A DNA stretch of 54,371 nucleotides. It comes from Bacteroidales bacterium. GTDB lineage: Bacteria; Bacteroidota; Bacteroidia; Bacteroidales; PXBB01. A model generated the notes under the pieces. It worked only from the letters and a program-made list of their open reading frames with translations, did not search any database and was not told the DNA's origin. The stretch spans positions 1 to 54,371 of the forward strand of contig PXBB01000110.1 in NCBI GenBank assembly GCA_003565735.1. The letters run 5' to 3'. Of the stretch, positions 460-37,074 are shown in pieces. The position numbers were made by a program, and so were the translations under genes. How positions within the stretch are numbered: position 1 is the stretch's first letter; each line of letters opens with the position of its first letter.

Positions 460-686
460 TTGTCATGCTGAGTTTCCCCCTTGTCATTCTGATTCCCTTG
501 TCATTCTGAACGCAGCGAAGAATCTATATTACAAGGAAAAAGAGATTCTTCACTCCACTACGTTTCGTTCAGAATGACACTAGGCGTTTGTCATGCTGAG
601 AGCAGCGAAGCATCTCTGTTATAGTAGAGATGCTTCAGTTCGACACCGCTCAGCAAGCACTCCACTACGTTTCGTTCAGAATGACA
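460..686. repeat. Cluster of REP-like imperfect palindromes (TTGTCATTCTGA family)
   Basis: Three left-arm starts, TGTCATGCTGAG (461), TTGTCATTCTGA (481) and TTGTCATTCTGAAC (498), are followed by two large hairpins. The first runs 498-580: GCAGCGAAGAATCT on the left pairs imperfectly with AGATTCTT on the right, and the outer arms are TCATTCTGAAC and GTTCAGAATGA. The second runs about 589-686 with the variant GAAGCATCT and the same outer right arm. Repeats of this sort are common in intergenic DNA of Bacteroidota and other phyla. The cluster ends 20 bases before the ORF6N gene. I see no coding potential in 401-700. Confidence 0.75.
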
Positions 687-705
687 GAATTGTATAAAAA
701 CTACC

Positions 706-1263
706 ATGACAGATATTATTAAACTTGAGGAAGTTGAAAGCAAAATTATTGAAATTAGAAATCAAAAGGTTCTTTTGGATAGTGATGTGGCTGTGCTTTA
801 TGGGGTGGAAACCAAAAGAGTTAATGAAGCTGTGAGTAATAATCCTGATAAATTCCCTGATGGGTATATTATTTATTTAACTAATAATGAATGGAGTACA
901 TTGAAGTCGAAATTTTCGACTTCAATAAAGGGCGGAAAAACAAAACTACCAAAAGCCTTTACAGAGAAAGGCTTGTATATGCTTGCCACAATATTAAAAG
1001 GTTCTAAAGCCACACAAACCACACTGACAATTATAGAAACCTTCTCAAAAATAAAAGAACTGACAAGAAACATTAAAAAACTTTCGAAAACCGAAGATGA
1101 CAAAAATAAGAAAAATCTTATGCAAAAAAGCGTGGAAATAACTGCAGAAATTTTAGCCTGTATTATTCATGCTTTTAATTTAGGTCAGATGCAAGGCGTC
1201 GAAAGCCGCCGACATAGTAAACTATTTCAAGGTTTTCGCAACGCAGCAGATGGCCTGAAGTAA
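706..1263 (+). CDS. ORF6N-domain protein with a C-terminus encoded by a MITE-like repeat
   Basis: This 185-residue protein has an ORF6N domain at about residues 10-100. The typical core is VLLDSDVAVLYGVETKRVNEAV, then a PDGYIIYLTNNEW segment and KAFTEKGLYMLATIL. ORF6N domains are small DNA-binding modules of the KilA-N/Bro group found in phages and in many Bacteroidota chromosomes, with poorly known function. Residues 101-149 are Lys-rich and likely helical. From residue 150 (LACIIHAFN) to the stop the DNA belongs to a repeat that recurs at 36875-37074. The tail was therefore probably replaced or extended by insertion. The gene stands alone between REP hairpins and decayed sequence. It may still be expressed, but its native C-terminus is probably lost. 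Confidence 0.75.
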   Translation: MTDIIKLEEVESKIIEIRNQKVLLDSDVAVLYGVETKRVNEAVSNNPDKFPDGYIIYLTNNEWSTLKSKFSTSIKGGKTKLPKAFTEKGLYMLATILKGSKATQTTLTIIETFSKIKELTRNIKKLSKTEDDKNKKNLMQKSVEITAEILACIIHAFNLGQMQGVESRRHSKLFQGFRNAADGLK

Positions 1264-1387
1264 AAGCACTTGCTAAAAGTAAACTATAAATATTTTCAAA
1301 AATTTGATCGCTTTTAGACTGATAATCTATATTATACATCTTTTTGTTTACTTTTTTTTGTTTACTTTTTGTGAATATTACAGGTTA
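1154..1387 (+). repeat. MITE-like element, copy A (overlaps the 3' end of the ORF6N gene)
   Basis: The element is bounded by imperfect terminal inverted repeats, TAGCCTGTATTATTCA on the left and TGAATATTACAGGTTA on the right. Sub-terminal inverted motifs AAAAGTAAAC and GTTTACTTTTTG lie inside. About 130 bases next to the left end (CATGCTTTTAATTT through CACTTGCTAAAAGTAAAC) match copy B at 36875-37074 at high identity, while the central part differs. No transposase is encoded, so this is a non-autonomous element. The left part is read as the last 36 codons of the ORF6N gene. Confidence 0.7.
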
Positions 1388-1680
1388 GAAGATGATTTAG
1401 ATCTTAATGAAACTGAAACATCTATTGAACTGAACTTTGCCGTTTTAAAGTTCAAGCACACCATTAAAAAGAAAAAAGAGAATTAGCAGATAAACAGTAC
1501 CAGCCCGAAAATACAGAATACAAAAACGAAGTGACAGTGCCTCAAACCATAAAGGGAGGCACTATATATCCAGTACCTAACCCACAAAGAAGCTTTATAG
1601 TGACATTTTTTCAAGGAAAAGGTGGTGCTATCAGAACTTCGATTTACTTCGAGCTTCTCAACGCAAGTCGCTCAATGTAA
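1388..1680 (+). pseudogene. Degraded, frameshifted open-frame remnant of unknown origin
   Basis: After the repeat one frame reads LEDDLDLNETETSIELNFAV and runs into KHTIKKKKEN before a stop at 1486. At an A-rich run near 1470 the neighbouring frame takes over as RELADKQYQPENTEYKNEV, then VTVPQTIKGGTIYPVPNPQR, and stops at 1680. The two pieces look like one coding sequence broken by a frameshift, with its 5' end replaced by the repeat. The IYPVPNPQRSF stretch recalls the start of a T9SS sorting domain, but this is too short to assign. The last 50 bases (CTTCGATTTACTTCGAGCTT and on) look like another REP-type palindrome. Treat as decayed sequence. Confidence 0.35.
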
Positions 1681-27393: not shown

Positions 27394-27433
27394 TATTTTT
27401 ACTAACGTAAAGTTACAAATAATTATTTTCTTT

Positions 27434-27460
27434 TAGCCTGTATTATTCACGAAAAGTAAA
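27434..27460 (-). repeat. Solo end of the MITE-like element
   Basis: TAGCCTGTATTATTCACGAA followed by AAGTAAA matches the reverse complement of the right end of copies A and B (TAACCTGCATTATTCACAAA, AAGTAAAC). No partner end is found within the 249-base gap, so it is a solo or truncated end. The rest of 27331-27579 shows nothing coding. Confidence 0.5.
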
Positions 27461-27579
27461 AAATTATATGTATATAGTTAATTATAGTACTAATAGTTCA
27501 CAAACTCTTGGAAATATTTATTATTTAACTGATTTTCAACTATTTATATTGTCAGACCATTTCTTATTGTCGCCATGAT

Positions 27580-36874: not shown

Positions 36875-37074
36875 TTAACCTGTATTATTCATGCTTTTAA
36901 TTTTGGTCAGATGTGAGGCGTCAAAAGCTGCCGATATAGTAAACTATTTCAAGGTTTTCGCAACGAAGCAGATGGCCTAAAAGCACTTGCTAAAAGTAAA
37001 CAAAAATAAAGTTTTGAAATGATAATCAATCTTATGAATTATTTTGTTTACTTTTTGTGAATAATGCAGGTTAA
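36875..37074 (+). repeat. MITE-like element, copy B
   Basis: A 200-base unit is bounded by near-perfect terminal inverted repeats TTAACCTGTATTATTCA and TGAATAATGCAGGTTAA, with one mismatch. The inner half matches copy A at 1154-1387. In the frame used by the ORF6N gene, copy B reads CIIHAFNFGQM, a TGA, then GVKSCRYSKLFQGFRNEADG and LKALAKSKQK. The shared stretch may thus derive from a coding sequence. No transposase is present. Confidence 0.7.

What the first reader, a model, noticed from the sequence alone, without database searches (positions are those of the whole stretch)
1154..1387. MITE-like element supplies the C-terminus of an ORF6N gene
The last 36 codons of the ORF6N gene are shared with a stand-alone repeat 36 kb away. 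Terminal inverted repeats based on TTAACCTGTATTATTCA bound both copies. The shared inner part keeps a nearly open frame in both: copy B has one TGA and then a longer tail ending KALAKSKQK. The element could therefore carry a tail-coding module into genes, or derive from one.
Basis: seen in the sequence. Interest (0 to 1): 0.6.

Follow-up and report, generated by a model that had tools for sequence, protein, structure and literature searches.

The report
Mobile repeat that truncates ORF6N gene
A small hopping DNA repeat, present in about forty places in this bacterium, has landed in a gene and replaced the gene's normal ending with an accidental one; the repeat's folded shape is kept across related bacteria, but the altered gene ending looks like a by-product.

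Summary
Window 1157-1384 (copy A) and 36879-37070 (copy B) are two copies of one small inverted-repeat element. ORF6N relatives end in their own tail (ETETTIEINFAVLKFKHTVKKK). Joining the window's flanks at the TTAG restores that tail, so the element landed in the gene and cut off its last ~32 codons. The 34 codons it supplies are incidental: the frame is open in 1 of 12 aligned copies and shows no codon-position bias. About 40 places in the genome carry the element. Of 23 placed copies, only this one splits a gene. Its ends match insertion sequences of the IS1380 family, which also use TTAA; one intact IS1380 transposase lies in the same genome. So it is most likely a MITE moved by IS1380. 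Three things go beyond the routine. The element folds into a two-armed structure whose first arm keeps pairing through compensatory changes in several Bacteroidales genera and in Persicobacter. Two inner modules come and go at fixed sites. No description was found in my searches.

The parts
706..1156 (+). native 5' part of the ORF6N gene (150 codons plus first base of codon 151)
   Evidence: ORF; Pfam ORF6N PF10543, 106.9 bits; 83% identical relative G002 over residues 1-151
1153..1156 (.). left target duplication TTAG
1157..1384 (+). MITE copy A (228 bp, short class)
   Evidence: model R1 135.8 bits
1157..1169 (+). left terminal inverted repeat CCTGTATTATTCA
1372..1384 (-). right terminal inverted repeat CCTGTAATATTCA (1 mismatch)
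1170..1268 (+). arm I hairpin, with compensatory changes across genera
1275..1369 (+). arm II hairpin; its 3' side (TTTTTGTTTACTTTT) occurs twice in tandem in this copy
   Evidence: (inverted repeats I1, I2)
1157..1263 (+). element-derived end of the present ORF (34 codons plus stop TAA)
1385..1388 (.). right target duplication TTAG
1389..1486 (+). severed native 3' end of the ORF6N gene (...DDLDLNETETSIELNFAVLKFKHTIKKKKEN stop)
36875..36878 (.). left target duplication TTAA of copy B
36879..37070 (+). MITE copy B (192 bp, short class), intergenic
37071..37074 (.). right target duplication TTAA of copy B
27433..27500 (-). decayed third copy: right end only (TTAG then CCTGTATTATTCACGAAAAGTAAA), reversed; inner boundary uncertain
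   Evidence: not found by model R1

Best explanation
The element is a MITE, a non-autonomous miniature transposon, most likely moved by transposases of an IS1380-family clade. It inserted at a TTAG in the 3' part of an ORF6N gene and duplicated the TTAG. Translation now runs into the element for 34 codons and stops, so the native last ~32 codons are cut off. Shown from sequence: the insertion boundaries, the duplication, the intact native tail downstream and in relatives, the multi-copy family, and the shared ends with IS1380 elements. Inferred: that an IS1380 transposase did the moving, and that the truncated ORF6N product is altered or inactive. Also inferred: that the conserved fold (three-way junction, arm I, arm II) matters for the element, either in transposition (hairpin or cruciform at the ends) or in transcripts that contain it.
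For: Target duplication TTAG/TTAG; joining the flanks gives EILEDDLDLNETETSIELNFAVLKFKHTIKKKKEN, matching relatives. Five of six close relatives end in that native tail; the sixth (G001) starts it and then departs. ~40 places in the genome. 10 of 22 two-ended places have a perfect 4-bp duplication against 0.13 expected. IS1380-family copies in other Bacteroidales have the ends CCTGAATTATTCATA and the like; of 30 PF13701 loci examined, six showed both ends, and 3 of those 6 had a perfect TTAA duplication. The own genome has one intact PF13701 transposase (479 bits) with a matching end, and 50 bp of that end match two MITE right ends at 82%. Fold: z -8.2 for copy A and -4.6 for copy B. Arm I: 24 of 30 pairs with changes on both sides, 120 cells against 33.7 in shuffles, 0 of 500.
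Against: Of the 7 genomes with arm I, only 3 have any PF13701 match (G000, G054, G214), against 77 of 295 overall; G052, G239, G252 and G259 have none (completeness 66-90%). Of those 3, G214's copy shows no matching ends. The own IS1380 copy lacks its second end (the contig starts there), so its own duplication could not be read. 12 of 22 two-ended places lack a perfect duplication. No strain of this species without the insertion was available; the empty site is inferred from other genera. The genome is a draft of 84% completeness.
Confidence: 0.87

Rival explanations
1. The element carries a tail-coding module that is delivered in frame to genes (like Rickettsia palindromic elements), and the ORF6N fusion is a functional product.
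For: The frame is open for 34 codons in copy A and nearly so in copy B. In-frame fusions of MITEs are described in reviews.
Against: 1 of 12 aligned short copies is open in that frame; no codon-position bias; 1 of 23 placed copies splits a gene. Conservation is on base pairing.
Confidence: 0.04
2. The element derives from the 3' end of an ORF6N-type gene that was captured and spread.
For: It shares 34 codons with the present ORF.
Against: Relatives of the gene have no such sequence and the native tail lies downstream of the element. Members of the same element family occur in other genera as stand-alone repeats.
Confidence: 0.01
3. The element is mobilised by a different transposase family that happens to use similar ends and a 4-bp TTAA-like target; the IS1380 match is convergence.
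For: Four of seven element-holding genomes have no detectable PF13701 protein.
Against: 13-bp ends plus TTAA target shared with IS1380 copies in several genomes, and a 50-bp, 82% match to the own IS1380 end. No other transposase with these ends was seen, but no systematic search for one was made.
Confidence: 0.15

Closest known systems
Bacterial MITEs (review PMC10969869, passages read)
   Same: Small, AT-rich, terminal inverted repeats, target duplication, no transposase, multi-copy, transcript predicted to fold into stable stem-loops
   Different: The review has no occurrence of IS1380 or Bacteroid-; inner modules at fixed sites
IS1380 family (PF13701; related to eukaryotic piggyBac, which duplicates TTAA: PMC10813416, PMC10140906, passages)
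   Same: Ends CCTGnATTATTCA and TTAA-type 4-bp duplication shared with the Bacteroidales IS1380 copies tested here
   Different: No transposase in the element. A Paracoccus IS1380 member is listed with 5-bp duplications (PMC3281130, passage), so 4 bp may be a feature of this clade
Rickettsia palindromic elements (PMC10969869 and PMC2229807, passages)
   Same: Structured repeat found inside a protein-coding gene
   Different: RPEs are described as open reading frames fused in frame in many genes; here the frame is not kept and the gene is truncated
BrickBuilt, MITE239 and 464/PgRS of Porphyromonas gingivalis (PMC4596501, passages)
   Same: MITEs in the order Bacteroidales; predicted stem-loops; a nested MITE
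   Different: Ends related to IS5-family elements and internal tandem repeats; different ends
Correia/NEMIS, ERIC, YAPL repeats (PMC2229807, passages)
   Same: Stem-loop repeats, some affecting mRNA (NEMIS through RNase III)
   Different: Different hosts; no expression data here

Membership tests
MITE | short, multi-copy, no transposase gene | tested here: met
   64-413 bp for two-ended copies; ~40 places; no coding frame kept
MITE | terminal inverted repeats | tested here: met
MITE | target-site duplication | tested here: met
   10 of 22 perfect 4-bp; control mean 0.13
MITE | ends shared with an autonomous element | tested here: met
   IS1380-family copies
MITE | mobility in trans shown | not testable with these tools
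   needs a transposition assay
IS1380 (full insertion sequence) | PF13701 transposase inside the element | tested here: not met
   no transposase in the two-ended copies of up to 413 bp; the one PF13701 gene of the genome is on contig C1
IS1380-related derivative | same ends and target as IS1380 copies | tested here: met
IS1380-related derivative | IS1380 transposase in element-holding genomes | tested here: inconclusive
   3 of 7
Rickettsia palindromic element type | frame kept open and inserted in frame in genes | tested here: not met
   1 of 12 open; 1 of 23 splits a gene

The most novel reading that the evidence does not exclude
The element is a folded nucleic-acid device under selection for its shape. 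Across several Bacteroidales genera and the cytophagale Persicobacter, arm I has changed sequence while keeping its pairing, although the transposase should need only the ends. If selection rather than palindrome self-correction explains this, the folded form itself is used, either as a hairpin or cruciform in IS1380 transposition, or in transcripts as an RNA-processing or stability signal. The two inner modules, which come and go at fixed sites that face each other across the stem, would be optional parts of that structure.
Probability: 0.3. Interest if true: 0.55.

Novelty: new member of a known kind. Interest (0 to 1): 0.33.

Why it matters
It settles that the odd ORF6N ending is insertional damage, which matters for annotation of this and similar drafts. 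It also gives a named parent candidate (an IS1380 clade), exact ends and target for a structured MITE family found patchily in Bacteroidota. If the fold is selected, the family is a natural test of whether MITE secondary structure has a function, because many independent compensated sequences exist to swap.

Tried and rejected
Rfam scans: window at gathering thresholds, no match; eight loci with longer copies at E up to 1, one match below threshold to an unrelated nematode snoRNA. Within-genome covariation on 12 short copies was uninformative (1 of 62 pairs with a double change); it became informative only with other genera. An exact 32-base core pattern found nothing in genome contigs, and a 29-base core nothing in viral contigs; a looser two-part pattern found 8 stretches in Bacteroidales drafts. 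Phages: no match. Phylum-wide model search: only the own genome among 395, so the family is patchy and the Persicobacter match would be easy to miss. Considered and rejected: inner module M2 as an independent mobile element, because all 13 matches of M2 lie in element copies or remnants (positions compared by me). Considered: preferred insertion at stop codons; some duplications contain the stop codon of a neighbouring ORF (C139, C166, C121_b, C29), but by my rough estimate, not computed, the number is near what TTAR sites would give.

Rows dropped: two of 24 pairs (alternative pairings at C42 and C49). From the covariation set: L152 and L153 (same scores as L167 and L160, taken as the same records), L154, L155 and L158 (29-31 bits), L177 and all reverse-strand self-matches (they score alike). 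The alignment A7 is fitted to model R1, and 16 of its 40 rows went into R1. In one search the right part of C29 was cut wrongly (72 nt) and is ignored.

Full report
What is there. The window is contig C108 of a 2.64-Mb draft genome, 84% complete. Copy A (1157-1384) and copy B (36879-37070) align with the ends CCTGTATTATTCA. TTAG flanks copy A and TTAA flanks copy B. Copy A differs by a tandem duplication of the 3' side of its second hairpin. A third, decayed right end lies at 27437 in reverse orientation.

The gene. The ORF at 706-1263 has an ORF6N domain (PF10543, 106.9 bits). A relative in the same family (G002) is 83% identical over residues 1-151 and then continues GDDLALNETETTIEINFAVLKFKHTVKKKKDN. 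Six close relatives were translated. Five end in this native tail; the sixth (G001) begins it and then departs. In the window the same tail lies directly after the element. Joining the flanks at the TTAG gives EDDLDLNETETSIELNFAVLKFKHTIKKKKEN in frame. So the element landed in the gene, and the ORF now ends after 34 element codons.

Is the tail a module? In 12 aligned short copies the fused frame is open only in copy A, and variable sites fall 7/34, 6/35 and 9/35 on the three codon positions (11 copies). Of 23 copies placed against ORFs of at least 70 aa, 17 overlap none. C46 and C48 overlap a gene end by 4-5 bases, C42_a overlaps a 78-aa ORF by 26 bases, C57 and C77 contain small ORFs, and only copy A splits a gene that resumes beyond it. 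The tail is a by-product.

The family in this genome. DNA similarity gives 59 pieces, which I merge to 40 places; only 40 of 141 first-look candidates were scored, so this is a lower bound. Ten of 22 two-ended places have a perfect 4-bp duplication of the type TTAG, TTAA, ATAG or CTAT, against a mean of 0.13 and a maximum of 2 in 2000 random trials. There are three main size classes: about 214, 322 and 410 bp. The larger ones carry an extra module M2 at CAAC|GCAGC, or M1 at GGTCA|GATG as well as M2; one degenerate copy (C77) has M1 alone. In the predicted fold of a long copy the inner ends of M1 and M2 pair with each other (GTATAAG with CTTATGC), and each module also forms hairpins of its own. 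Copies with nearly the same right part differ in module state: C39 (M1+M2) and C91_43163 (none) 96%; C42_61645 (M1+M2) and C134_29647 (none) 95%. Modules were therefore lost, gained or exchanged more than once; which of these is open.

The parent. One intact PF13701 transposase is on contig C1 (479 bits), with the end CCTGAATTATTCATA. Fifty bases of that end match two MITE right ends at 82% (E 8.9e-5). Its other end is lost at the contig start. Among 30 PF13701 loci, six show both ends, with lengths of 1470-1795 bp; three of the six have TTAA on both sides. The same ends and target make an IS1380-clade transposase the best candidate. Against it: only 3 of 7 element-holding genomes have a PF13701 match (77 of 295 overall), and one of those three shows no matching ends. 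Papers: passages on piggyBac use IS1380 transposases as distant prokaryotic relatives and give TTAA as the piggyBac target (PMC10813416, PMC10140906), while a Paracoccus member is listed with 5-bp duplications (PMC3281130).

The fold. Copy A folds at z -8.2, copy B at -4.6 and a long copy at -7.3: the ends close a three-way junction with arm I and arm II. A covariance model of the left end plus arm I (R1) found matches in 7 of 295 genomes of the order (6 of 183 genera), in other Bacteroidales drafts and, by DNA search, there are matches on three Persicobacter replicons (Cytophagales), where the model scores 52-54 bits. Two of these three show TTAA on both sides. In a phylum-wide sample only the own genome matched (1 of 395). 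On 40 matches (Persicobacter not among them), 92.1% of cells pair, 24 of 30 pairs have changes on both sides, and 120 cells do, against 33.7 (sd 4.4) in shuffles and 10-29 in slid versions. The left and right sides of the stem change together, for example GCTTTTA/TAAAAGC, GCATTAA/TTAATGC and GAAATTA/TAATTTC. Cautions: the alignment leans to the model, 16 of the 40 rows built it, related rows count many times, and palindromes can be kept by template-switch correction without selection on function (recalled, no call).

Known or new. MITEs, and MITE fusions to genes, are well described (PMC10969869, PMC2229807, passages). P. gingivalis, also in Bacteroidales, has MITEs with IS5-type ends (PMC4596501, passages). 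Searches for MITE with IS1380 and Bacteroidetes (none), MITE with IS1380 (five papers, listings seen, one of them read in passages), MITE with Bacteroidales (one, the P. gingivalis assembly paper, read in passages) and for the end sequence TATTATTCA with transposition terms (31 papers hold the terms, 20 listed, none of them on such an element by title) gave no description of this family. The library is open-access only, so this is weak evidence of novelty. I file it as a new member of a known kind: a structured, probably IS1380-driven MITE family in Bacteroidota, one copy of which has truncated an ORF6N gene.

Noticed in passing
window 27433-27500: Decayed third copy: right end only, reversed, next to TTAG.
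   Followed up: partly
window 470-690: Another palindromic repeat type (TCATTCTGAACGCAGCGAAGAATCT and its inverse CACTACGTTTCGTTCAGAATGAC) just upstream of the ORF6N gene.
   Followed up: no
L119 (own genome C45:8900-9997), near the contig end: A long-class copy whose module M2 is interrupted after a hairpin by sequence ending CCAGAGGGTGAAAGTCCCT, which looks like a group II intron start (by eye, recalled motif; Rfam at E up to 1 gave nothing for this locus; the contig ends there).
   Followed up: partly
L008 (own genome C57:22828-23230): A copy with a different insert of about 180 bp inside arm II, itself with complementary ends.
   Followed up: no
L064 (G001:C71): The ORF6N relative in a genome of the same family also departs from the native tail, after ETETTIQ; a second, independent lesion of the same gene end is possible.
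   Followed up: no
L093 (G054:C150:22-144): A much simpler relative: a 123-bp near-palindrome with the same ends and TTAA on both sides.
   Followed up: partly
C139, C166, C121_b, C29 copies (L007, L003, L042, L009): The duplicated TTAG or similar target contains the stop codon of a neighbouring ORF, so insertion leaves the gene intact; in C139 it serves both converging genes.
   Followed up: partly
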